The notes under the pieces: generated by a model
What the model was told of the DNA's origin: nothing
Database searches by the model: none
What the model saw: the letters and a program-made list of their open reading frames with translations, nothing else
Program-made: the position numbers and the translations under genes
Shown: piece after piece, positions 271-29,188 of the stretch
Layout: each line of letters starts with the position of its first letter
Numbering within the stretch: position 1 is the stretch's first letter
Source of the DNA: Candidatus Limnocylindrales bacterium
GTDB lineage: Bacteria > Moduliflexota > Moduliflexia > Moduliflexales > JAUQPW01
Assembly (NCBI GenBank): GCA_035559535.1
Contig: DATMBG010000043.1
Coordinates: 1-64,000, forward strand
Direction: 5' to 3'
DNA length: 64,000 nucleotides

Positions 271-2043
271 CTAAACGGTTCCTGCCGGTGCAAGGGGAAC
301 TGCAAAGGCTTTGACCTCTTGGGCTACGGGCTCGTATAAGTCCTTGAACTCCACCCCGCAGTTCTGATCAATAGCAAACTTAGCCGCGTTGACCATATCC
401 CGATGTTGGGCCGGGTAATTTTCTTCACACCCGTCGGTGGAAAGAAGGACGGGTTTTCCGGGTTCTTTTAGCTTAATGGTTACATAGTTTTTCCAGATGG
501 TCTTAAAATCCCGGGATACCCAGCCCCCGGTGTGATCATAGATAATATCGGTATTTTTATAGGACCAGACATCGAAATATCCGGGCTTATCCACTTCGAG
601 GGAGGCAGAGACCAATACTTCAGGATTTACCGATTTAATCACATCGGCAACCCAGTTATGCCAGGTGGCACCTCCTCCCATATTGTACTCATTACAGACT
701 TCAAAGATAATATTTTTATACTCTCGTAACGAATCTACCATGTAGCGAACATAGTTTTCTTGAAGGGCCCGAACTGTTGGATTGGGATTATAAAACTCAG
801 GGCGACCATCCTTAGGATTGGTGATCGGGCCGCCATTAGCGGCATTAAAGGGATGTCTTCGCCAGGTCATGCCGGAGGGTGTGTCCCAAAGGGCTACGTT
901 GTCGAACAAATCTAAAACCACGATAATTCCCCTCTCTCCAAAGGATCGGACCAGATTTTTCAGGTTCTCCATATAGATCGGATCGAAACGGTTCAAGTCA
1001 AACTTCCCCGTTTGACCTACTCTACTCCAGGGGAAAAGAGACGAGGTCCAGGTATCGATACAGAAAACTCGGGTAAGACACGCGTTATACCCCCGGATAA
1101 TGTCGGCAAACTCGGCAGGGGTCTTCCCCTTGTAAGGGCCGTCCCAGGGATAAAAACTCATATCTGTCCACATATAGGTAGAATACCCCGTAATCACCAG
1201 CTTTTGGGGCGGATCTATCTCATTATAAAGATCGTAGCCCCTAGCCCTAAGGTTATAAACATAATCCCCCATAAAGGGGGATACCGGAGAGGGTAAAAGT
1301 TTGGCCAATTCCTCGTCCGATAGGAAACTCCCCTCTGGGAGTATCCATCCCTCCCCCAACCTGGGAGAGGAGAGGGGGGTAAGGGCAGGATCCACAATAC
1401 AGATAAACTTAATGGCCATATAGGTATAACCCATATAATAAAGCCGGAATTCTAATTTGGAATCAGGGGATGTGGGTCTAAAAGGTAAAGCGAACCGAAC
1501 AGGTTTACCGGCTTCGGGGAAATCTTTTCGGGTCAGGATCATTTTGGCGATCACCCGGGTGGAATCCTGAACCACATCCAGAGTGCCCACATAAGCGTCG
1601 TCAAAGGTGTTATTATCTACGACGACACTGAATACGGCTATCCAGTCCTGAACCGGAAAACCCTTTTCGTACTGTCCAAAAACCAGGAATCCCGGCTGGG
1701 TTGTGGCCCGAACCGCCCTATACCGAAGCCTTGTCGGGTTTCCCCAGTTGGGAAAAGTTGGGGAATCTATAAAAATTCCAGGATGGGCAGAAGGGTGTCT
1801 TAAGGCATCGTAAATTTTAAAAAACCCGGTAGGAAGACTTACCGGAGGAGAAACCTCTTTTTTTCTACCCACCTTCTCTTTTACAACCCGTTTAGAAGGT
1901 CTGGAGGGTTTTACTTCGGGACCATGCATTGACTTCACAGGCCTTAAAGGTCGAACCATCTTGGCAGATGTTTCCCTTTCTTTAGGAGTTTTTATGGATT
2001 TACTTGATGCCACCGTTTTTTTCTTATTCGACTTACGTTCCAT
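271..2043 (-). CDS. GH5-like (clan A) glycoside hydrolase
   Basis: This 590-residue protein looks like a TIM-barrel glycoside hydrolase of the cellulase/mannanase type. The motif FEVCNEYN near residue 450 fits the acid/base Asn-Glu of clan A enzymes, and the nucleophile is probably a later Glu (STDGCEEN near residue 543). The first 65 residues are very Lys/Arg rich with no signal peptide, which is odd for a polysaccharide hydrolase, so the location is unclear. The start is supported by GGAGG nine bases upstream. Residues around 220-260 are encoded by DNA resembling the CCC-rich intergenic repeats of this genome, so a repeat may have inserted in frame. Substrate is unknown. Confidence 0.7.
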   Translation of the reverse strand: MERKSNKKKTVASSKSIKTPKERETSAKMVRPLRPVKSMHGPEVKPSRPSKRVVKEKVGRKKEVSPPVSLPTGFFKIYDALRHPSAHPGIFIDSPTFPNWGNPTRLRYRAVRATTQPGFLVFGQYEKGFPVQDWIAVFSVVVDNNTFDDAYVGTLDVVQDSTRVIAKMILTRKDFPEAGKPVRFALPFRPTSPDSKLEFRLYYMGYTYMAIKFICIVDPALTPLSSPRLGEGWILPEGSFLSDEELAKLLPSPVSPFMGDYVYNLRARGYDLYNEIDPPQKLVITGYSTYMWTDMSFYPWDGPYKGKTPAEFADIIRGYNACLTRVFCIDTWTSSLFPWSRVGQTGKFDLNRFDPIYMENLKNLVRSFGERGIIVVLDLFDNVALWDTPSGMTWRRHPFNAANGGPITNPKDGRPEFYNPNPTVRALQENYVRYMVDSLREYKNIIFEVCNEYNMGGGATWHNWVADVIKSVNPEVLVSASLEVDKPGYFDVWSYKNTDIIYDHTGGWVSRDFKTIWKNYVTIKLKEPGKPVLLSTDGCEENYPAQHRDMVNAAKFAIDQNCGVEFKDLYEPVAQEVKAFAVPLAPAGTV

Positions 2044-2389
2044 GGAGAAGTCCTCCTATACTTAGGTTGCAGTTTTGGATGTTATATCATCTCACATCGA
2101 AGTAAAAATAACAGATTACTTCGTCCCCTTCGCTTCACTTTAGGCTTCGGCTCACCTCACGTCCCCACCATGACGGACCCTGTACCCTAAATCTGGCGAG
2201 TTGTGGATTAATTTAAATCAGGCTGGCAACTCTAACAGAAACTTCAAAAAAATTCAAGCAAAAAATAGACTGACTTTAGAAAACTTTTTTAATTTAAGGA
2301 GGGGGGATACCCCGGTTCTGGAGATTATGAGGGAGATAGGGGAAGGTTGATATAATCGTCTGGAGACCCACGGAAGGAAGTCGATCCCC
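2044..2389. other. Gap without recognisable gene
   Basis: About 345 bases between selA and the hydrolase gene. I see A/T-rich stretches and short repeats (cttcgcttcac, cttcggctcacc) but no convincing ORF, RNA gene or terminator. Confidence 0.4.
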
Positions 2390-3838
2390 TTAGAGGCTTT
2401 TACAGATAACCGATATGGCTTCAGCAAGGATAGGGAACTGGGACACTTCCAGGGTTCTAGGATCCAGGAGAAGTTCATCATTCTGAATCCGTGCCAGGAT
2501 AGGAGGATTATAGGCCCGTAATCGCTCTTCCAGGCATTGAACGGAGAATTTAAAAGGTTTAACGGCAACGACCTTGGTGGGAAGTTTCTGTAGTGGAAGG
2601 GCACCGCCACCTACCTGAGAGAAGTCATCCAGAATTCTGGCAGAAAAAGACTCTCCAGAGGGTTGCCCGGGTGTATCTGGGTTGGTTGGAAAGTGTTGGG
2701 TTTCTAACAGAAGATTCAACAGGTTTTTAGCCCTCGCTTCCAGCTCAGGCAGCTTCATGGTTAACATACGAAGGGTGGGGATTTCCTGAATAGCTTTTTC
2801 TGGATCCAGGTATTCCAGGAGAACCGCTTCCAGGCCGGCCAGGGTCATTTTATCTACCCGAATAGCCCGGGTCCATGGGTTTTTCTTAAGTTTCTCAATA
2901 TAGGTCGCCTTACCCACAATCAATCCGGCCTGGGGACCGCCCAGGAGCTTATCTCCACTAAAGGTAACAATATCCACCCCGGCCCGGATACAATCCTGGA
3001 CGGTAGGTTCTTTTTCTAAACCATAGCGGCTCAGATCGATCAGGCTTCCGCTTCCCAGGTCTTCCATGACGGGAACATGATATTCCCGTCCCAGTTGAAC
3101 CAGCTCTTCCAGGGAAACCTCGGACGTAAAACCTAGGATCCGGTAGTTACTGGTATGAACTTTAAGGAGAAACGCCGTGTTAGGGGTAATGGCTTCCCGA
3201 TAATCCCGGAGATGGGTCTTGTTGGTAGTTCCCACCTCTTTGAGGATAGCCCCGCTTTTTACCATAATATCCGGGATTCGGAAAGAGCCTCCGATCTCGA
3301 TGAGCTGGCCTCGAGAGACGATTACCTCTTTTCCCTGGGCAAAGGTGTTTAAAACCAGTAAGACCGCTGCCGCATTATTATTAACCACAAGTCCGGATTC
3401 AGCCCCGGTTAGCCTTCTCAGGAGCCCTTCGATGTGGGTGTATCGTTCTCCCCGCTCCCCGGTACTGAGATCCAGTTCCAGATTAGAATACTGTCGGGCA
3501 ATCTCGGTGATTCTTTGACAAACGCGTTCACTTAAAGGAGCCCGTCCCAGGTTGGTATGGAGAATAACTCCGGTGGCATTGATAAGATATTTTAAATGAG
3601 GTTCCATCTGGCTTTTTACCACAACTTCCAGTTCTGCGATGAGCTGAGACTTATCGATTTGAGGCAATCGCGTAGGATCTAAACTCTCCAGGATTTGGGA
3701 GCGACGCGCATTAAGAACTTTTCGAATCCCTTCGACGACAATTTCCCTGGGAAATTGTTCTAAAAGTTCCTTCACCAAAGGTTCTGCCAGCATCGCATCT
3801 ACAGAGGGGATTTGGGTAAGATAGGCCCGCTTATCCAT
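2390..3838 (-). CDS. selA: L-seryl-tRNA(Sec) selenium transferase
   Basis: SelA is a PLP enzyme that converts seryl-tRNA(Sec) to selenocysteinyl-tRNA(Sec) using selenophosphate. The 482-residue length is normal for the family. Visible features are the N-terminal domain with the NATGVILHTNLGRAPL motif after residue 85, the conserved GERG segment, and the PLP lysine in TFSGDKLLGGPQAG near residue 300. No selB, selD or tRNA-Sec is in the window, so the rest of the pathway must lie elsewhere. Its presence makes selenocysteine decoding of UGA plausible for genes in this genome, which matters for the BNR-repeat protein at 62847-63770. Confidence 0.95.
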   Translation of the reverse strand: MDKRAYLTQIPSVDAMLAEPLVKELLEQFPREIVVEGIRKVLNARRSQILESLDPTRLPQIDKSQLIAELEVVVKSQMEPHLKYLINATGVILHTNLGRAPLSERVCQRITEIARQYSNLELDLSTGERGERYTHIEGLLRRLTGAESGLVVNNNAAAVLLVLNTFAQGKEVIVSRGQLIEIGGSFRIPDIMVKSGAILKEVGTTNKTHLRDYREAITPNTAFLLKVHTSNYRILGFTSEVSLEELVQLGREYHVPVMEDLGSGSLIDLSRYGLEKEPTVQDCIRAGVDIVTFSGDKLLGGPQAGLIVGKATYIEKLKKNPWTRAIRVDKMTLAGLEAVLLEYLDPEKAIQEIPTLRMLTMKLPELEARAKNLLNLLLETQHFPTNPDTPGQPSGESFSARILDDFSQVGGGALPLQKLPTKVVAVKPFKFSVQCLEERLRAYNPPILARIQNDELLLDPRTLEVSQFPILAEAISVICKSL

Positions 3839-3912
3839 GAATTTGTTGTTTTATCTCCTGAGAATAAAAGGAAGAAGCCTCTGAGACAGTGGGCCATCGA
3901 GATGCGGATAAT

Positions 3913-3940
3913 GTAGGGGTTATCGGCCGATAGCCCCTAC
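3913..3940. repeat. GTAGGGGC-type palindrome
   Basis: A 28-base palindrome of the form GTAGGGGTTATCGG-CCGATAGCCCCTAC with one arm mismatch. It lies between selA and the MEMO1 gene and has the conserved ends with a different core. Confidence 0.75.
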
Positions 3941-4030
3941 TATCGGGATGTGGGGATTTCTCGTATCCCTGGTCCCTGGGTCCCACTGTCCCAGAACCGT
4001 CTTATCCAGGACAATTAACCAACAATTAAT

Positions 4031-4070
4031 TTAGGAATTGAGGAATTCCCAATTCCTAATTCCCAATTCC
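4031..4070. repeat. Heptamer-word hairpin repeat
   Basis: Words ggaattg and aggaatt are followed by cccaatt, cctaatt and cccaatt, giving a period-7 hairpin that abuts the end of the MEMO1 gene. The words resemble those at 188-242. Confidence 0.7.
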
Positions 4071-4937
4071 AAAAATAATTCCGGCGTAACCTACAAAATC
4101 TTCTATCTCTCCTTCGGATCTTACTTCATAACTGGTAATATGTTCCAGAAGGACTCCTTTTTGTGCCCCCAGGGTCCTAGCCGTTGCAACCGCTGCGGCA
4201 ATAGCTCCGGCCCCACAAGCATTATGATGGGATCTGGCTTCTGGAATGACGTTTTCTGCCTTCATTTCCAGGGCCAATTGAATTATCCGGCGATCGTTCT
4301 CTTTACTCCAGGCCAGAGTTTCAGGTCCAACACCGGCCGGGGTAAAGCGATAGCCGGGACCATAATGGGTTAAATCGGTACTTCCCAAAACTACAACGGG
4401 TTGGTTCCCTGTGGAAAGAAGGGTACCTATACGCTCTCCCAGGATGACCGCCTGGTTATCCGGTGGAACCATAATGGGAAGAATTTTAGCGCCGGGGAAC
4501 AAATACTGGATAAAAGGGACTTGTACTTCTATAGAATGTTCCCTGGCATGAACTTCCGGATCAGCCGCTACCGGTATATCCTCGGCGAGTATTTTCTCGG
4601 CCAATTCGCCGGCTACTTCTATTTTGCCCAAAGGAGTCTCCCAATAACCTTCCGGATATAGAGAAGGAACCTCGGCGCCCCAGACATGAACGGCCCCATA
4701 AATCAGAAACACAGGGGCTTCGGTGGCTTTTCCCATTTTTTCTTTGATATTATAAAACACTTTACCGGCTGTAGGTCCCGAATATACCCATCCTGCATGA
4801 GGGACAATGCCTGCGATAATACGAGGAGGTTCCTCGGGAGCAGGAACCTGGTTCAAGCAGGTTTCCAGCAATTGAATGCAGGCAGAGCGGGAGGCCGGAT
4901 AAAAACTTCCAGCCCGGAAAGCTTTCCTGGTCCTCAT
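4056..4937 (-). CDS. MEMO1-family protein (AmmeMemoRadiSam system protein B)
   Basis: This 293-residue protein matches the MEMO1 / AmmeMemoRadiSam protein B family, a fold related to extradiol dioxygenases and LigB. Recognisable segments are the N-terminal RAGSFYPA, PHAGWVYSGPTAG with a putative metal-binding His near residue 48, REHSIEVQVPF near residue 138, and SHHNACGAG near residue 236. In many genomes the gene sits beside an AMMECR1 protein and a radical SAM protein; neither partner is adjacent here. Its biochemical role in bacteria is not established. Confidence 0.88.
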   Translation of the reverse strand: MRTRKAFRAGSFYPASRSACIQLLETCLNQVPAPEEPPRIIAGIVPHAGWVYSGPTAGKVFYNIKEKMGKATEAPVFLIYGAVHVWGAEVPSLYPEGYWETPLGKIEVAGELAEKILAEDIPVAADPEVHAREHSIEVQVPFIQYLFPGAKILPIMVPPDNQAVILGERIGTLLSTGNQPVVVLGSTDLTHYGPGYRFTPAGVGPETLAWSKENDRRIIQLALEMKAENVIPEARSHHNACGAGAIAAAVATARTLGAQKGVLLEHITSYEVRSEGEIEDFVGYAGIIFGIGN

Positions 4938-4974
4938 AAAAGGTTAAAAATCATAAGCCATGAGGGATGCTGTC

Positions 4975-5050
4975 TTGGACCTGGAGACGCGGGGGGATTC
5001 TTTGTGCCCCCAGTCTCCTTGTCCCCGCGTCTCCGCGTCTCGACGTCTCA
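4975..5050. repeat. Word hairpin repeat (gacgcgg type)
   Basis: The arms ggagacgcgg and ccgcgtctccgcgtctc form an imperfect hairpin with a 7-to-9-base word. It fills most of the gap between the MEMO1 and deoxyhypusine-synthase-like genes. Confidence 0.6.
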
Positions 5051-5082
5051 AATAGGTTCACCCCCCATGACCCATGATTCAC

Positions 5083-6024
5083 TTAATCGAGTTCCTCAAT
5101 AATTCCGGCAGCAAGAAGAGGGAGCATGATTTCGTGATGACCAAAGAGGGCATACCCTTTTCCGCTACCTGAAACAGGACGGTTTATCACATTCTGGGTG
5201 GGTCGGTAGTGTTTAATAAAGTCCATATTAACCGTCACAAAGTTCTCAACGGGGTAACCCAGGTTTCGAACCAGAGTCAGGGCTTTTAAGAATACTTCGG
5301 GAAGAAGAACTGCGGAGCCGATATTGAAATAGACGCCCCCTTCCAGGTTCGAAATCACCGAGGCAAAAATTTTAAAATCCCGGAGACTCCCTTCCCCCAA
5401 TGCCGATCCCTTTGCCCTGGGGTGCATATGAATGATATCCGTACCGACGGCGATATGAACGGTGGCCGGTAACTTCAATCGATAGGCGGCTGCCAGAAGG
5501 CTGTAATCCAGATAAGCCGGACTTAAATTTATCAGCTCTCGACCTACGGCAGCTCCTATACCCAGGTGATCTTGAACTCCCTTTTCAATAGCCTCATTGA
5601 GAAATTCTCCCGTCTCTCGAGCCATTCCAAATTCTCCGGTGGAGAGGCCTTCTTCAACCTCCTCAGAGGTTTTCCCAGCCAGAGCCAATTCAAAATCATG
5701 GATGATGCCGGCCCCGTTCAGAGCAATCGCCGAGACGACCCCCCTTTCCATGAGGTCTAGGATGACAGGTGAAAGGCCACACTTAATCACATGGGCCCCC
5801 ATGGCAAATACAACCGGCCTGTGGGCTTTAACTGCAGTTACAACGGCCTTTATAATCTGTCGGAGATCTGTTCCGGCCAAAATATGCGGCAGGGAAGAGA
5901 TAAAATCCTGAAAACTCCCCTTTTTTTGCCAGCGGTGGGCAAAATCGCCAACCTTTACCTTACTTTTTCGATCCAGCAAGGGATAGGTTTTAATTTTTTC
6001 CAGATTAATAGGCTCGTAAGACAA
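5083..6024 (-). CDS. Deoxyhypusine synthase-like protein
   Basis: This 313-residue protein resembles bacterial members of the deoxyhypusine synthase family, an NAD-dependent Rossmann-like fold. Supporting segments are MGAHVIKCGLSPVILDLMERG near residue 95, NGAGIIHDFELA near residue 123, and GTDIIHMHPRA near residue 200. Bacteria lack eIF5A, so true deoxyhypusine synthesis is unlikely. Bacterial relatives include homospermidine-synthase-like enzymes and many uncharacterised proteins. I cannot confirm the catalytic lysine of deoxyhypusine synthase, so substrate and reaction are open. It is followed by gmhA in the same direction. Confidence 0.6.
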   Translation of the reverse strand: MSYEPINLEKIKTYPLLDRKSKVKVGDFAHRWQKKGSFQDFISSLPHILAGTDLRQIIKAVVTAVKAHRPVVFAMGAHVIKCGLSPVILDLMERGVVSAIALNGAGIIHDFELALAGKTSEEVEEGLSTGEFGMARETGEFLNEAIEKGVQDHLGIGAAVGRELINLSPAYLDYSLLAAAYRLKLPATVHIAVGTDIIHMHPRAKGSALGEGSLRDFKIFASVISNLEGGVYFNIGSAVLLPEVFLKALTLVRNLGYPVENFVTVNMDFIKHYRPTQNVINRPVSGSGKGYALFGHHEIMLPLLAAGIIEELD

Positions 6025-11982: not shown

Positions 11983-12064
11983 TGCGAGAGGTGGGATTTG
12001 AACCCACACGGTTTTACCCACAGGATCCTAAGTCCTGCGTGTCTGCCAGTTCCACCACTCTCGC
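11983..12064 (-). tRNA. tRNA-Leu (anticodon UAG)
   Basis: A long-variable-arm tRNA with acceptor stem GCGAGAG/CTCTCGC and discriminator A. The anticodon loop CTTAGGA gives UAG, and the T arm is GGGTTCAAATCCC. CCA is not encoded. It is followed in the same direction by nothing until tig. Confidence 0.95.
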
Positions 12065-12084
12065 AAAAATAAATCTTCTCTGAA

Positions 12085-12158
<74 letters not shown>

Positions 12159-12415
12159 ATAACATTTTCCCAATGCAGGAATAAATCTGGATTTTGGCTT
12201 GCTGGCATAAACACCGTATAATAAAATAATCTCCGAAGGAAGAATAAGTCAAATATTTTTCTCATGGTTTCGCCTTCCGCTCCCCCTCTTCTCAAACATC
12301 ATAGACCCCCCAGGTACCGTTACAAGAAATTCATTACAGATCTGGATTAAATGGTTAAGTTTTTAACACAATTTTCCCCCATCGTCAATGAAAAAATCCT
12401 TGACAAATCTTCCCG

Positions 12416-12443
12416 TTGACCAGAATTTATTCCTTAGTAATAT
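12416..12443 (+). promoter_or_regulatory. Probable sigma-70 promoter of tRNA-His
   Basis: TTGACC (12416-12421) and TAATAT (12438-12443) are separated by 16 bases, just before the tRNA. A second TTGACA lies at 12400-12405. Confidence 0.5.
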
Positions 12444-12451
12444 AGAACCAT

Positions 12452-12525
12452 GGTGGTCGTGGTGTAAAGGTTAACACTCCAGGTTGTGGCCCTGGCGAGT
12501 GCGGGTTCGAGTCCCGCCGATCACC
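12452..12525 (+). tRNA. tRNA-His (anticodon GUG)
   Basis: The anticodon loop TTGTGGC gives GUG. The acceptor GTGGTCG pairs with CGATCAC, leaving the extra 5' G opposite C73 that is the identity mark of histidine tRNAs. The T arm is CGGGTTCGAGTCCCG. CCA is not encoded. Confidence 0.96.
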
Positions 12526-22453: not shown

Positions 22454-22455
22454 TA

Positions 22456-22700
22456 TTTAAAGGGTATGGGGGTGTGGGGGTTGGGAAAGTATGGGGGTGT
22501 GGGGGTGTGGGAGTATGGGAGTATAGAAGTATGGGGGTATGGTAGGGAAGTATGGAAGTATGGGAGTATAACCATTCTCTCACTTCCCCACTCCCACACT
22601 CCCATACTCCTACACCCCCATACTTTCTCACTTCCATACTCCTATACTCCCACACCCCCATACTTCCATACTCCCAAACCCTCACACCCCCACACCTCAT
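22456..22700. repeat. Large word hairpin (period-8, gggagtat type)
   Basis: A G-rich array of eight-base words (gggggtgt, gggagtat, agaagtat and variants) at 22463-22570 is followed by its C-rich complement (atactccc, acaccccc) at 22575-22697. The element could fold into a hairpin about 100 bases long or form G-quadruplexes. It is the largest of the word hairpins and separates acs from the hydrolase gene. Confidence 0.85.
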
Positions 22701-22709
22701 TTCTTTAAA

Positions 22710-24871: not shown

Positions 24872-24987
24872 ACGAGAAATTAAATACACTAAAACCTCTT
24901 CTAGCAACTTATTATCTTTTGGTCAATGAAAACCTTCAATAAAAATTTTTCTTGCATCGGGCAATTATCCCTTTTAAAATGAATTCT

Positions 24988-25758
24988 ATGGGTTTTAAAA
25001 AGACAGAAGCGTTTATAATCCGGTCTTTCGATATTAACGAGGCCGATAAAATCATTGTTTTTTATTCAAAATCCTTCGGTAAATTGAGGGGGATAGCCCG
25101 AGGGTCGAGAAAGTTGAAAAATCGGTTTGGAAGTAGTCTGGAGTTATTCACTCGGGTCCAGGTAAACCTCTTTGAAAAGGAAACTTATACCTTTCCTAAC
25201 ATCAGTCAGGCAGATATTATCGAGTCGTTTTCTGAACTGAGAGGAGATTTACGGAAACTCGCTTCAGCAGCCAGTCTGGTGGAGTTGGTAGATAAAGGTG
25301 TAGGTGAAAATGAAGAAAGTCCTCCGCTTTATGATTTAATCAGCCAGGCGTTGAGAGCGATGGTAGTATATCCCGAAGAGGAAATAGATAAGGTTCTTAT
25401 AACCTTTGAAATTAAATTCCTGACCCTGTCCGGCTATAGCCCCGTTTTGGATCGGTGTGCGCAATGCCGAAACCCCTTAAATACCCCTCGGGTTTTATTC
25501 AGCTTATCTAAAGGAGGTGGCCTTTGTAAAGGATGTACCGGGGAAGGAAACCCGGTTTTTCCAACCTCCTTACAAGCACTTCAGATCTTAAAACAACTTT
25601 TGAAGATGGATTTAGAAAAATGCCCTCGACTTAAGATCTCTGAAGAGACTCAAAGGGAAATCAAGATGCTTTTAAGGAGATGGTTGGATTTCTATCTGGA
25701 GGTTCCTCTAAAGGCTCCAGAATTTTTAGATTCCATAAGAAGATTAACCCAAGGTTAG
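24988..25758 (+). CDS. recO: DNA repair protein RecO
   Basis: RecO loads RecA with RecR in the RecFOR pathway. The N-terminal OB fold (TEAFIIRSFDINEADKIIVF and GIARGSRK) is typical, and a zinc-binding cluster CAQC...GGLCKGC lies near residues 150-185. About 256 residues from MGFKKTEAF; earlier Met codons at 24952 and 24979 are also possible and I see no clear ribosome site. In many bacteria recO precedes glyQ; here a ubiquitin-like cassette lies between them. Confidence 0.92.
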   Translation: MGFKKTEAFIIRSFDINEADKIIVFYSKSFGKLRGIARGSRKLKNRFGSSLELFTRVQVNLFEKETYTFPNISQADIIESFSELRGDLRKLASAASLVELVDKGVGENEESPPLYDLISQALRAMVVYPEEEIDKVLITFEIKFLTLSGYSPVLDRCAQCRNPLNTPRVLFSLSKGGGLCKGCTGEGNPVFPTSLQALQILKQLLKMDLEKCPRLKISEETQREIKMLLRRWLDFYLEVPLKAPEFLDSIRRLTQG

Positions 25759-25860: not shown

Positions 25861-26154
25861 ATGCAAAAGGTAATCGATGATGAAAGATCCTATACCCATC
25901 CCTTTGACCCTCTGAGAGAATCTGAGTCCTCTGCCGGGAGTACTTATACCATCATTCATAATGGTAAGCGGGTTGAAGTACCCGAATCCATAAAGACCGT
26001 TGGCCAGCTCAAGGAATTTTTAGGAGTTCCGGAAGATTATACTGTTACGGAATATACCGGTAATTCTACTTCTAAGCTACTGACTGATAACTTTAGTACG
26101 GAGAAATTAAAAGGCGTAAAAATCGCCACCAATCCCCAAGTGATCTCGGGTTAA
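25861..26154 (+). CDS. Ubiquitin-like protein (single Multi_ubiq-type domain)
   Basis: A 97-residue protein with a flexible N-terminus of about 27 residues and one beta-grasp-like domain (TYTIIHNGKRVEVPESIKT, then LKEFLGVPEDYTVTEYTG, then a last strand GVKIAT). The GVPEDY segment is typical of the Multi_ubiq group of bacterial ubiquitin-like proteins. It ends directly in Gly (QVISG) with no tail, as needed for adenylation by an E1. A strong AAGGAGG site sits seven bases before the ATG. JAMM and ThiF genes downstream support a role as a protein modifier. A sulfur carrier is the main alternative, but there is no GG end and no sulfur gene nearby. Confidence 0.7.
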   Translation: MQKVIDDERSYTHPFDPLRESESSAGSTYTIIHNGKRVEVPESIKTVGQLKEFLGVPEDYTVTEYTGNSTSKLLTDNFSTEKLKGVKIATNPQVISG

Positions 26155-26193
26155 ACAGCTTGATACTTATACGGTTAAAGACCCTCTATAGCG

Positions 26194-26230
26194 TTAACCT
26201 TTCAAAGGTCATAAACCTTTGAAAGGTTAA
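26194..26230. promoter_or_regulatory. Perfect 16-bp inverted repeat inside the Ubl cassette
   Basis: TTAACCTTTCAAAGGT (26194-26209) and its exact complement (26215-26230) flank the loop CATAA. Each arm is itself nearly palindromic (ACCTTT-C-AAAGGT). It could be a protein operator or an mRNA hairpin that sets the ratio of Ubl to downstream proteins. There is no T tract, so it is not a typical terminator. Confidence 0.8.
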
Positions 26231-26272
26231 TGTGGATTGTAAGGCTGTTGCACAGTCTTGAGGGGTTGTGCT

Positions 26273-26812
26273 GTGTTTAAACTGTTTAACTGGTATAAAC
26301 AAAACGTTGAGGAGATCAATCGTCAGTATCTTGAATTGATTAGACTCATAGGTACCGAAGAGTGCTTCCGTTTTTCTCATCCCATTGAATTACCGGCGTA
26401 CGAGACCAAAGGGATCTATGCCATGGCGGATGTACGTACTTCCAAAGATCAGAAGGGTTCTTATATCGAGGGGTTTGATTACATCTATCTCTATAACTGG
26501 AAATTGCCTGCGGAGTTGGCTCTTACCTGTGGAAAAGAAAGCCCAGTTACCCATGCACTGATAGAGCTACCGGTTACAGCCGGAAATAAGGGGGCCGTCA
26601 AAAATTACCTCATGCATATCGAAGAGGGGTTTAGCCGGCTTCTAGGGGAACATTATTTTCCTGCAACTTCTCGTCAGTCCCATCATGGAGACCTGGGATG
26701 GTGTTGGTCTTGTTTCCATGTCTATGCCGATGTGACCCTGGCGGAATATGTACGTGCAGCCTGGCATTGGTTCGCAAGACAGGCAGAGAAAACGAGAAAG
26801 AGATGGTGGTAG
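26273..26812 (+). CDS. Unrecognised protein in the E2 position of the Ubl cassette
   Basis: I do not recognise this 179-residue protein. It begins with a helix (FKLFNWYKQNVEEINRQYLEL) and continues with strand-rich segments (KGIYAMADV, FDYIYLYNW, HALIELPVT) and a C-terminal WCWSCFHVYADVTLAEYV helix with paired Trp/Cys. In Bil-type operons the second gene encodes an E2, and a helix followed by a beta sheet and a late Cys would suit that fold, but I see no HPN motif and cannot name the catalytic Cys. I prefer GTG at 26273, after GAGGGG, over the upstream TTG at 26258. The stop is one base before the next start. Confidence 0.6.
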   Translation: MFKLFNWYKQNVEEINRQYLELIRLIGTEECFRFSHPIELPAYETKGIYAMADVRTSKDQKGSYIEGFDYIYLYNWKLPAELALTCGKESPVTHALIELPVTAGNKGAVKNYLMHIEEGFSRLLGEHYFPATSRQSHHGDLGWCWSCFHVYADVTLAEYVRAAWHWFARQAEKTRKRWW

Positions 26813-26813
26813 T

Positions 26814-27251
26814 GTGGTCCTTAAAATCTCAAGGGCCGATCTGGCTTTCCTTAAAAAGGCGCTTCGGTCACCAAAGGAAAAAGCTTACCTGGGTGCTGTA
26901 TCTAAAGAATTTAAACTGATTGAAATTTTAAAAGATACGAAAATCCAGCATAACGGACTTTTCCATGTTGTTGTAGACCCAGAACAGTGTGGTTCTTACC
27001 TCCAGTGGGTCCACGCTCAAGGATATTATCTGTTCCTTTTTCATACCCATCCCCTTTCTAAAAGAGCCAGATACTCCAGAATAGATAATACTTATCATCC
27101 CCAACTGGCTCGATACGGATTCTACGATAAAGAGGGTAATTATATCCAAAACAATGCTCTTGTTCGACTGTTATTTTCACGTACAGAATATCAGGCCGGG
27201 ATTTATTTAAAGGAAACCTATCAACCGGTAAGGATCAAAGTAGTGAACTAA
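26814..27251 (+). CDS. JAMM/MPN+ metallopeptidase (JAB domain)
   Basis: A 145-residue JAB-domain protein. The zinc motif is complete: HTHP, seven residues, S, two residues, D (HTHPLSKRARYSRID near residue 83), and an upstream Glu in EKAYLG near residue 21. Bacterial JAB proteins linked to ubiquitin-like genes remove or mature the modifier at its C-terminal Gly. I take GTG at 26814, one base after the upstream stop, as start; longer forms overlap the previous gene. A MITE-like element begins right at its stop codon. Confidence 0.85.
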   Translation: MVLKISRADLAFLKKALRSPKEKAYLGAVSKEFKLIEILKDTKIQHNGLFHVVVDPEQCGSYLQWVHAQGYYLFLFHTHPLSKRARYSRIDNTYHPQLARYGFYDKEGNYIQNNALVRLLFSRTEYQAGIYLKETYQPVRIKVVN

Positions 27252-27380
27252 TACACGGTTTACATAGTTTTGGCTTAGCGTTTAAGGGGCCTTCACCCCC
27301 GACCCCTCTCCCACGCTGTGGGAGAAGGGCGTTGGAGAGTGAAGGCCGTCCTGGGAGGTCAAAATTAAGTAAATCGTGTA
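27252..27380. mobile_element. MITE-like element (129 bp) with TA-ended inverted repeats
   Basis: Left end tacacggtttacatagtttt (27252-27271) and right end (27361-27380) are inverted repeats matching at 17 of 20 positions, both ending in TA. The interior is a CCC-rich palindrome (cttcacccccgacccctctc and its complement). It separates the JAMM and E1 genes. Related sequence occurs near 32.7, 33.4 and 46.2 kb. TA ends fit an IS630/mariner-type MITE. Confidence 0.65.
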
Positions 27381-28212
27381 CCGATCAACGCAGGGGTGTA
27401 AGGGTATAGAGATACGGAAACCAGGTAACAATGTTGCTACCTCCCCTTCTCTAGGCCCTTGCATCGAGATTAATTTGAATTTATTATTAGTTGGCCTTGG
27501 TGGAAATGGCTGGGCGCTGATGCGAAAATTAATGTCCTGGGAAAATATTGAGGTGGCCGTCATAGAACCCGATCAAATAGAATCCTCTAATCTCCCCAGG
27601 CTGATAGGCGCTACAGACCAACATGTGGGGTTTTATAAAACAGAAGCTTTCGAAGCCATATTCGGATATCGATTTCTGAAAAAAATTCAAAGTAAAGTCC
27701 AGGATTGCACGGAGAATTTTCAAGATTATGAGGTTATCGTTGCCTGTGTCGATAATAATGAAACCCGGCAATATCTGGCTATGGCTGGTCTTTACTTTAA
27801 GGTGCCCCTCTTTGACCTGGGGGCCGGAATCGTCATTCGAAATGGACAGGTCATCTTCAAGGGAGGCCAGATACGAATCCAACTCCCCGGAGAAGAATGC
27901 CTTTTCTGTATGGGGTTACCCTTACCCGTTTCCGACAGGAAAAAGGCTTTACGTCGAGCAGCCGGTTACCTGGATACCGGGGATCCCCAAGAAGAAATCC
28001 ACCGGAATCGAGGAGAGGAAATTTTAGCTATCAACGAAGCTCTGGTTGCACTGGCTCTGCCGGAGATCTTAACTTATCTGGATAAGGGTACGGTAACCAG
28101 CAAATATATTCGATTAAACTTGATCCAGAACCAGCAGGAGTTTATTCAAACAACGATCGTGCCCAATTGTATTTGTCAGGTCGAGAAACAGAACAAGGTG
28201 TATATCTCATAG
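27376..28212 (+). CDS. ThiF/E1-like adenylyltransferase
   Basis: A 278-residue E1-like enzyme that would adenylate the C-terminal Gly of the ubiquitin-like protein. The ATP site is LLLVGLGGNGWALM near residue 36, followed by the acidic loop EPDQIESSNLPR, and CVDNNETR near residue 118. Zinc-type cysteine pairs are CLFC near residue 176 and CIC near residue 268. I see no other well-placed Cys for a thioester, so charging of an E2 is uncertain. The start is doubtful: GTG at 27376 lies inside the right end of the MITE; TTG at 27475 is the next option. Confidence 0.8.
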   Translation: MYRSTQGCKGIEIRKPGNNVATSPSLGPCIEINLNLLLVGLGGNGWALMRKLMSWENIEVAVIEPDQIESSNLPRLIGATDQHVGFYKTEAFEAIFGYRFLKKIQSKVQDCTENFQDYEVIVACVDNNETRQYLAMAGLYFKVPLFDLGAGIVIRNGQVIFKGGQIRIQLPGEECLFCMGLPLPVSDRKKALRRAAGYLDTGDPQEEIHRNRGEEILAINEALVALALPEILTYLDKGTVTSKYIRLNLIQNQQEFIQTTIVPNCICQVEKQNKVYIS

Positions 28213-28297: not shown

Positions 28298-29188
28298 ATG
28301 ACTTTTCAAGAGGTTATTCTAACACTCGAGCGATTCTGGGCTAATAAAGGGTGTATCCTCCTACAACCCTACGATATGGAAGTAGGAGCAGGAACCTGTC
28401 ATCCGGCCACCCTGCTTCGATGCCTCGGTCCAGAACCCTGGAATGTGGCCTATGTACAACCGTCTCGTAGACCCACGGACGGTCGTTATGGGGAGAATCC
28501 CAATCGCCTCCAACACTATTACCAATATCAAGTCCTGATGAAACCCTCTCCACCTAATCTCCAGGACCTTTATTTGGAGAGTTTATTCAATCTGGGCATT
28601 GATCCCCTGGAACACGATATCCGGTTTGTGGAAGATGACTGGGAAAACCCAACCCTGGGAGCCTGGGGACTGGGTTGGGAGGTCTGGCTGGATGGGATGG
28701 AAATTACCCAGTTTACCTATTTTCAACAGGCGGGCGGCATCGATCTTTTCCCTATTTCGGGTGAAATTACCTACGGATTGGAACGTATCGCCATGTATTT
28801 ACAAAAAGTTGATAATGTATTTGACTTAATATGGACGCCGGGTATTAAATATGGAGATGTTCATCATCAAGGTGAAGTGGAGTACTCCCGATATAATTTT
28901 GAAGTCGCCGATGTGGATATGCTGTTTCGCTTGTTTGAGATGTATGAGCGGGAAGCTCTGCGAGCTCTGGACAGAAAAATAGTTCTGGCCGCTTATGATT
29001 ACTGTCTGAAATGCTCTCATACGTTCAATCTTCTGGAAGCAAGGGGAGCCATAAGTGTTACAGAACGAACCGGATTCATCGCGCGAGTTCGAAATATTAC
29101 GAAAATGTGTGCCGAAGCTTACCTCAAACAACGGGAAGAAATGGGATTTCCTTTGTGTAAGTCGAAGGAAAAGCAGGTGGTTCATTAA
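28298..29188 (+). CDS. glyQ: Glycyl-tRNA synthetase alpha subunit
   Basis: Catalytic alpha subunit of the bacterial alpha2-beta2 glycyl-tRNA synthetase. The N-terminus [30 protein letters not shown] is cut here to its key parts: [14 protein letters not shown] and [25 protein letters not shown] is class II motif 2-like, and the length of 296 residues is normal. The beta-subunit gene glyS, which normally follows directly, is absent; the next gene is a lipoprotein. glyS must be elsewhere in the genome. Confidence 0.96.

What the first reader, a model, noticed from the sequence alone, without database searches (positions are those of the whole stretch)
25861..28212. Ubiquitin-like conjugation cassette (Ubl, unknown, JAMM, E1) inserted between recO and glyQ
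Seen: four co-directional genes. The first encodes a 97-residue Multi_ubiq-like protein ending in a bare Gly (QVISG), the third a complete JAMM motif (HTHP-x7-S-x2-D), the fourth a ThiF/E1 with GLGGNG and CVDNNETR. Known: recO and glyQ are neighbours in many bacteria, and the order Ubl-E2-JAMM-E1 is that of Bil-type defence operons. Inference: this is an accessory modification system, possibly antiviral, dropped into a housekeeping locus. The protein in the E2 position is not a recognisable E2, which could make it a new subtype.
Basis: partly seen in the sequence, partly recalled or inferred. Interest (0 to 1): 0.85.

Follow-up and report, generated by a model that had tools for sequence, protein, structure and literature searches.

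The report
Diverged bacterial ubiquitin-like tagging operon (Bub-like)
A bacterium known here only from environmental genome assemblies carries, between two housekeeping genes, a stably inherited four-gene set that very probably attaches and removes a small ubiquitin-like tag, as a distant cousin of the recently described bacterial 'Bub' pathway whose carrier enzyme appears to use a cysteine where most Bub systems have a serine.

Summary
In detail: four co-directional genes lie between recO and glyQ and encode a ubiquitin-like protein (Ubl), a protein in the E2 slot, a JAMM protease and an E1. The E1 start needs moving from 27376 to about 27475. The nearest known kind is Bub (operon type 6e of Iyer 2006), not Bil, CBASS, PRTRC or sulfur carriers. 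The E1 scores 105 bits against Bub E1s, 49 against MoeB/ThiF and 23 against PRTRC. The JAMM scores 23.5 bits against Bub JAMMs. The predicted Ubl fold best matches solved bacterial multi-ubiquitin proteins. The 'unknown' second protein is probably a very diverged BubB-type E2: it shares the motif GWCWxCxH with a BubB relative in a second Ubl-E2-E1 operon of the same genome, but it fails Pfam and its structure model was unusable. That motif puts Cys where classical BubB has Ser; Ser-type E1s form a supported clade (97/96) that excludes the window. The locus is conserved in a sister species under strong purifying selection, with no defence or mobile genes among the neighbours examined. It reads as a resident protein-modification system; an antiviral role is unsupported. 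The paper defining Bub could not be read, so the novelty of the Cys type is provisional.

The parts
24952..25758 (+). recO, upstream housekeeping neighbour (boundary)
   Evidence: Pfam RecO_N, RecO_C; dN/dS 0.185 with sister
25861..26154 (+). Ubl (BubA-like), 97 aa: ~25-aa N-terminal extension, one beta-grasp domain (residues ~28-92), ends in a natural terminal Gly (VISG)
   Evidence: AF2 core pLDDT ~84, order E-E-H-E-E-H-E; Foldseek top hits bacterial multi-ubiquitin proteins 9d5b, 8u38, 9d5a; 15.3 bits to a Bub Ubl profile, best shuffle 6.2; 1 aa change in 97 with sister
26191..26233 (+). Perfect inverted repeat (16-nt arms 26194-26209 / 26215-26230; RNA stem 19 bp) just after the Ubl gene; no U-tract; possible processing, stability or attenuation element
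   Evidence: Repeat search; z = -4.7; single copy in both genomes, arms identical, loop changed
26273..26812 (+). E2-slot protein, 179 aa, probably a diverged BubB/Prok-E2_E; candidate active site Cys147 (26711-26713) and His149 in GWCWSCFH (residues 142-149)
   Evidence: Motif shared with same-genome BubB paralogue GWCWICVH; hhalign score 38 vs at most 20 in 100 shuffles; no library hit; AF2 failed, pLDDT 34; dN/dS 0.019
26814..27251 (+). JAMM/JAB metalloprotease, 145 aa: H77-T-H79 ... S88-R-I-D91, candidate catalytic Glu22 (BubC-like)
   Evidence: 23.5 bits to Bub JAMM profile, best shuffle 4.3; PRTRC_A -1.5 bits
27475..28212 (+). E1 adenylating enzyme (BubD-like), ~245 aa from TTG; GLGGNG, Lys, D126-N127 (numbered from GTG 27376), CxxC ... 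CxC zinc cluster; lacks the N-terminal helix found in other E1s
   Evidence: ThiF 59.8 bits; Bub E1 profile 105.2 bits over full length; ATP-site residues kept
28298..29188 (+). glyQ, downstream housekeeping neighbour (boundary)
   Evidence: Pfam tRNA-synt_2e 504 bits

Best explanation
A resident Ubl conjugation/deconjugation system of the Bub kind, in a diverged Cys-type lineage. Proposed course: the E1 adenylates the C-terminal Gly of the Ubl, which needs no trimming because the gene already ends in Gly. The E1 has no conserved Cys outside its zinc cluster and the CVDNN region, so the adenylate probably passes directly to the second protein, an E2 of the BubB/Prok-E2_E type, forming a thioester on Cys147 assisted by His149. 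The E2 then places the Ubl on a target nucleophile. The JAMM protein removes the tag. The hairpin after the Ubl gene may keep Ubl mRNA in excess over the enzymes. Shown: gene order, purifying selection, synteny, E1/JAMM/Ubl kinship to Bub, conserved ATP-site and metal-site residues. Inferred: E2 fold and activity of the second protein, identity of the nucleophile, direct transfer, targets, hairpin role. Targets and physiology are unknown; a constitutive or stress-related housekeeping role is judged more likely than phage defence.
For: E1: 105.2 bits to a Bub E1 profile, against 49.3 (MoeB/ThiF) and 22.6 (PRTRC); hhalign E 1e-23 over 227 columns against 8e-14 and 7e-8. In the second tree the window E1 groups with the paralogue (88/87) and L006 (83/78), while MoeB/ThiF form a separate clade (100/100). 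JAMM 23.5 bits to Bub JAMMs. Ubl fold best matches bacterial multi-ubiquitin proteins. E2 motif shared with the paralogue, which itself scores 34-36 bits to a BubB profile. Cys-x-His in window, paralogue and two haloarchaeal systems (Cys-x-Glu in L006); Ser at that position in the classical BubB proteins read. Second Ubl-E2-E1 operon in both species. dN/dS Ubl 0.040, E2 0.019, JAMM 0.113, E1 0.142, glyQ 0.046.
Against: The E2 assignment is not secure: no Pfam, NCBIfam, PADLOC or PHROGs hit; HMMER score to the BubB profile (4.6) no better than shuffles (5.2); hhalign against a larger, poorly aligned BubB set gave nothing (13.6); AF2 failed. The hhalign signal against the paralogue rests on about 20-25 columns. 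The E1 lacks the N-terminal helix that carries an Arg finger in MoeB-type dimers (own knowledge), so its activity may be altered or need a partner. The window E1 sits on a very long branch and the first tree did not place it. No DUF6527 partner and no JAMM-E1 fusion, both common in classical Bub.
Confidence: 0.68

Rival explanations
1. The second protein is not an E2 but a specificity or scaffold protein (adaptor or target). The E1 charges the Ubl and transfers it without an E2, or borrows the E2 of the paralogous operon.
For: No library hit for the second protein; unusable model; a paralogue E2 with a clear BubB match exists in the same genome.
Against: Same position in the operon as BubB; same GWCWxCxH motif as the paralogue E2; strongest constraint of the genes compared (dN/dS 0.019), fitting a conserved active site.
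Confidence: 0.2
2. An antiviral Ubl system (Bil/CBASS-like) acquired as a defence module.
For: Same protein classes and gene order as defence operons; other Bub operons occur on plasmids and next to immune-type regulators (PMC13373217).
Against: None of the ten or so flanking proteins examined is a defence or mobile-element protein; same site in the sister species; no close relatives in 50,697 phage records, plasmids or the viral contigs scanned; no upstream regulator between recO and the Ubl gene; Bub not shown to protect against phage (PMC13373217).
Confidence: 0.12
3. A sulfur-carrier pathway (ThiS/MoaD/CysO-like) with JAMM and E1.
For: JAMM-E1-carrier trios exist for cysteine biosynthesis (own knowledge) and the E1 is in the ThiF family.
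Against: The genome has separate MoeB-like E1s and six ThiS/MoaD-family hits, one set beside its own Prok-JAB gene on C42; no rhodanese or sulfurtransferase here; E1 profile and Ubl fold favour Bub.
Confidence: 0.04
4. A decaying Bub remnant, E1 truncated and no longer functional.
For: E1 lacks its N-terminal segment and has the highest dN/dS of the four (0.142); its start codon changed between the species.
Against: All four ORFs intact in two species, dN/dS well below 1 for each, ATP-site residues and the CxxC kept.
Confidence: 0.07

Closest known systems
Bub (bacterial ubiquitination-like) pathway; operon type 6e of Iyer, Burroughs and Aravind 2006; Citrobacter BubB and BubCD (PDB 9eae, 9eav, 9ea5)
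   Same: Component set and order (Ubl, E2-like, JAMM, E1); E1 and JAMM profile kinship; Ubl fold; E2 motif with [S/C]-x-[H/E] after an aromatic residue
   Different: JAMM and E1 are separate genes; no DUF6527 gene; single-domain Ubl with N-terminal extension; Cys instead of Ser in the E2 motif; E1 without the N-terminal helix; chromosomal housekeeping locus
Split Bub operons L003 (G090) and Candidatus Tenderia electrophaga plasmid (L087)
   Same: Separate JAMM and E1 genes in the same order
   Different: Ser-type or altered E2 motif (CFSWH, FASWD); Tenderia has a multi-Ubl-E2 fusion
Cys-type Bub-like operons: paralogue in the same genome (L014/L013), L006 (G041), haloarchaeal plasmids (Natribaculum L019, Natrinema L088)
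   Same: Cys at the candidate nucleophile position; paralogue and L006 are the nearest E1s in the second tree
   Different: Clear BubB profile match; E1 with N-terminal helix; JAMM fused to the E1 (L006, L019; probably L088 by length) or absent (paralogue)
Bil (BilABCD) defence operon
   Same: Ubl, E2, JAMM, E1 in one operon
   Different: BilD has two adenylation domains plus a Cys domain (PMC11354881); the window E1 is a single short domain; no Bil model match
PRTRC system
   Same: Separate E2, JAMM and E1 genes in the same order; weak full-length E1 match (31.8 bits, cut-off 144.75)
   Different: JAMM and E2 profiles do not match; no ParB or other PRTRC partners here

Membership tests
Bub (type 6e) | E1 (BubD) of the Bub subfamily | tested here: met
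   105.2 bits to a Bub E1 profile vs 49.3 MoeB/ThiF and 22.6 PRTRC; tree
Bub (type 6e) | Ubl of the bacterial multi-ubiquitin (BubA) fold | tested here: met
   Foldseek top hits multi-ubiquitin proteins, probability 1.00, best E 1.9e-3, modest TM ~0.53; Pfam Multi_ubiq cut-off not reached
Bub (type 6e) | BubB / Prok-E2_E (PF14462) E2-like protein | tested here: inconclusive
   No Pfam match; HMMER no better than shuffles; motif and hhalign match to BubB-like paralogue above shuffles
Bub (type 6e) | JAMM/JAB peptidase of the Bub subfamily | tested here: met
   23.5 bits vs best shuffle 4.3; HxH...SxxD and candidate Glu present
Bub (type 6e) | JAMM fused to E1 (usual, not universal) | tested here: not met
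   Separate genes here, as in L003 and Tenderia
Bub (type 6e) | DUF6527 Zn-finger partner (usual, not universal) | tested here: not met
   No such gene in the recO-glyQ interval; annotated in L015, L017, L018, L089, L090
Bub (type 6e) | Ubl conjugation activity | not testable with these tools
   Biochemistry needed
Bil | Matches to BilA/B/C/D models | tested here: not met
   Only BilD at 11.3 bits, E 0.024
PRTRC | PRTRC_A (JAB), PRTRC_B (E2) and PRTRC_ThiF | tested here: not met
   ThiF 31.8 of 144.75 bits; PRTRC_A -1.5, PRTRC_B -0.7 bits
Type II CBASS (Cap2/Cap3) | E1-E2 fusion with a CD-NTase neighbour | tested here: not met
   E1 is one domain of ~245 aa; no CD-NTase between recO and glyQ
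ThiS/MoaD sulfur-carrier pathways | Sulfur-carrier Ubl with MoeB/ThiF-type E1 and sulfur-transfer neighbours | tested here: not met
   separate sulfur-carrier genes elsewhere in the genome

The most novel reading that the evidence does not exclude
A Cys-type Bub lineage, spread over haloarchaeal plasmids and unrelated bacteria, runs through a thioester on its E2, is separate from the Ser-type Bub clade, and in this genus has become a vertically inherited housekeeping protein-tagging system with two paralogous operons, one with a JAMM eraser. It would show the Ser/Cys switch in E2 chemistry inside one prokaryotic family.
Probability: 0.35. Interest if true: 0.75.

Novelty: new variant of a known kind. 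Interest (0 to 1): 0.55.

Why it matters
If the E2-slot protein is a Cys-type BubB, the Bub family contains both Ser- and Cys-based E2 chemistry, and the nucleophile switch could be tested directly with small soluble proteins. A Ubl system fixed at a housekeeping locus under glyQ-like constraint would also suggest that ubiquitin-type tagging in bacteria is not only a defence trait.

Tried and rejected
Pfam, NCBIfam, PADLOC and PHROGs searches of the second protein: no match. AF2 of the second protein: pLDDT 34, not searched further. tblastn of the second protein against plasmids and a pattern scan of viral contigs: nothing; of the E1 against phages: nothing. One genome-contig scan with E1 patterns returned 8 loci, only the sister genome close. 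Survey of the recO-glyQ interval beyond the genus: not possible, the other two genomes of the order have no match to this glyQ. PRTRC considered seriously because of gene order and a full-length E1 match, rejected on E1 and JAMM profiles (its profile rests on 3 members). First E1 tree left the window unplaced; dropping three long rows and most MoeB/ThiF rows and adding Tenderia and Natrinema gave 88/87 with the paralogue, so that placement depends on sampling. A larger BubB set aligned by MAFFT misplaced the paralogue motif and lost the window match. The PRTRC flanks that should hold its Ubl were fetched but not analysed. The papers defining Bub (Ye et al.; Gong et al. 2025) and Bil (Chambers 2024) are not held, so whether they describe Cys-type systems is unchecked.
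Full report
WHAT IS THERE. Between recO and glyQ lie four genes on the + strand: a 97-aa Ubl ending in a bare Gly (25861-26154), a 179-aa protein (GTG 26273-26812), a 145-aa JAMM protein (GTG 26814-27251) and an E1 ending at 28212. The E1 therefore begins at its first beta strand and lacks the N-terminal helix present in the paralogue and in classical E1s.

THE GENES ARE REAL AND OLD HERE. The window is contig 43 of a 5.6-Mb assembly. A sister species (record JAUQPW01, 'bacterium isolate JZ-2.bins.100.201901') has the same four genes in the same place. Counts of synonymous and nonsynonymous changes give dN/dS of 0.040 (Ubl), 0.019 (second protein), 0.113 (JAMM), 0.142 (E1), against 0.185 (recO) and 0.046 (glyQ). 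The second protein has two amino-acid changes in 179 with 24 synonymous changes, the strongest constraint of the six genes. The habitat was not established.

A SECOND OPERON. The same genome (contig 48) and the sister carry a paralogous Ubl-E2-E1 set without a JAMM, next to a membrane protein; in the sister an ammonium-transporter gene and a glutamine-synthetase-like gene follow (the last two named from their sequences by eye). Its E2 (138 aa) gives 15.6 bits to Prok-E2_E (cut-off 25) and 34-36 bits to a BubB profile built here.

WHICH KNOWN KIND. Iyer et al. 2006 (PMC1779556) described operon type 6e: Ub-like repeats, an E2/RWD-like protein lacking the usual Cys, and a JAB-E1 fusion. The Protein Data Bank now holds Citrobacter BubB and BubCD as sequence relatives of such proteins, and PMC13373217 calls the family Bub and states that it has not been shown to protect against phage. 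The window E1 scores 105.2 bits against 13 Bub E1 domains, 49.3 against ten MoeB/ThiF and 22.6 against three PRTRC E1s; hhalign E-values are 1e-23, 8e-14 and 7e-8. The JAMM scores 23.5 bits against Bub JAMMs (best of 300 shuffles 4.3) and -1.5 against PRTRC_A; that JAMM profile contained one wrongly picked row (L019), which should if anything have weakened it. The Ubl scores 15.3 bits against Bub Ubl domains (best shuffle 6.2); its AF2 model (mean pLDDT 69, core about 84) has the beta-grasp order, and its first Foldseek hits are the Methylobacterium and other bacterial multi-ubiquitin proteins, with a Citrobacter multi-ubiquitin protein at rank 8 (best E 1.9e-3, TM about 0.53). The E-values are modest and other Ub-like folds follow closely, so the fold is well supported and the family moderately so.

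THE SECOND PROTEIN. Library searches fail and its own AF2 model is useless (pLDDT 34). Three things suggest a diverged BubB: its place in the operon; the motif GWCWSCFH, which the paralogue E2 shares as GWCWICVH; and hhalign scores above shuffles (38.0 vs at most 20.0 against the paralogue pair; 26.6 vs at most 18.7 against BubB plus paralogue; 100 shuffles each). Against it: plain HMMER (4.6 vs 5.2 in shuffles) and a larger, badly aligned set (13.6). I put E2 identity at about 0.7-0.75.

SER TYPE AND CYS TYPE. Lined up on the His by eye, classical BubB reads Wxx(W/F)S(R/W)H, for example in Synechocystis, Pseudanabaena, L028-L031 and L003 (Citrobacter FQGWSRH), and WFSWH in Deinococcus, Rhizobium, Bradyrhizobium and L022. 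The window (CFH), the paralogue (CVH), L006 (CFE), Natribaculum (CIH, one of its two E2s) and Natrinema (CIH) have Cys in place of that Ser. Exceptions exist: Natribaculum's other E2 has neither residue, and L033, L034, L025 and Tenderia keep the Ser but lack the His. In the E1 tree the ten Ser-type E1s form a clade (97/96); the window groups with the paralogue (88/87) and L006 (83/78); one clade of all Cys-type rows is not rejected (p-AU 0.294), nor is it shown. Row sampling was changed after the first tree, which had not placed the window, so this is suggestive and not settled. That the Ser in classical BubB is the catalytic nucleophile is my recollection of the Bub paper, which is not held; here it is a lead, not a result.

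MECHANISM. Residues of the adenylation site (GxGGxG, Asp, Asn, Arg, Lys, Asp) are kept in the window E1, and the only widely shared Cys are the zinc CxxC/CxC and one or two around the CVDNN region; so I infer transfer from the adenylate straight to E2 Cys147. The Ubl ends in Gly and needs no trimming, so the JAMM is more likely an eraser than a maturation protease. A perfect 16-nt inverted repeat (19-bp RNA stem; z -4.7) lies between the Ubl and E2 genes, occurs once in each genome, and keeps both arms in the sister while the loop differs; it lacks a U-tract, so a processing or stability role that favours Ubl mRNA is more likely than a simple terminator. This is inference.

DEFENCE OR HOUSEKEEPING. 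Neighbours examined include NAD synthase, MscS, SDR, Ham1, isochorismatase, recO, glyQ, BrkB and a periplasmic binding protein; PADLOC gives only one trivial hit among them (not every ORF of the window was searched). No close relative was found among phages, plasmids or the viral contigs scanned. Together with synteny and constraint this favours a resident role. It does not exclude defence.

WHAT IT IS NOT. Bil, CBASS, PRTRC and sulfur carriers fail their tests (see the membership table). The genome's own sulfur-carrier genes lie elsewhere.

VERDICT. Observation confirmed with a corrected E1 start; interpretation partly supported. New variant of a known kind (Bub-like, Cys-type, split, chromosomal), interest 0.55.

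Noticed in passing
G000:C42:8676-9377 (L051) and G001:C64:69340-70041 (L052): A MoeB-like E1 with an upstream rhodanese-like stretch has a conserved in-frame TGA (APT*DEAGVLGVLPG) where MoeB proteins usually have SCAEAGVLG (own knowledge), in both species; a tRNA-Sec gene (74.5 bits) is present in both, so a selenocysteine E1 is possible.
   Followed up: partly
G000:C42:8182-10279: A ThiS/MoaD-family gene, the MoeB-like E1 and a Prok-JAB gene lie together, resembling a CysO/Mec-type sulfur-carrier cluster; separate from the window system.
   Followed up: no
window 26194-26230: Perfect inverted repeat TTAACCTTTCAAAGGT-cataa-ACCTTTGAAAGGTTAA between the Ubl and E2 genes, once per genome in both species.
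   Followed up: partly
L087 (Candidatus Tenderia electrophaga plasmid) 1838-4285: Split Bub operon labelled hypothetical: Ubl-like domains fused to an E2-like domain, then separate JAMM and E1 genes.
   Followed up: partly
L019 (Natribaculum luteum plasmid) 1811-5098; L088 (Natrinema plasmid) 2244-4383: Haloarchaeal plasmids carry Bub-like operons of the Cys type, mostly labelled hypothetical; Natribaculum has two Ubl-E2 pairs before one E1.
   Followed up: partly
window 22454-22709: A low-complexity stretch between two genes translates to repetitive GVWEYGSMEV / HTPTPP-like peptides on both strands; similar filler is seen downstream of the C42 MoeB-like gene.
   Followed up: no
window 11984-12525: Several tRNA-like matches (30-32 bits in the tRNA-Sec search) suggest a tRNA cluster.
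   Followed up: no
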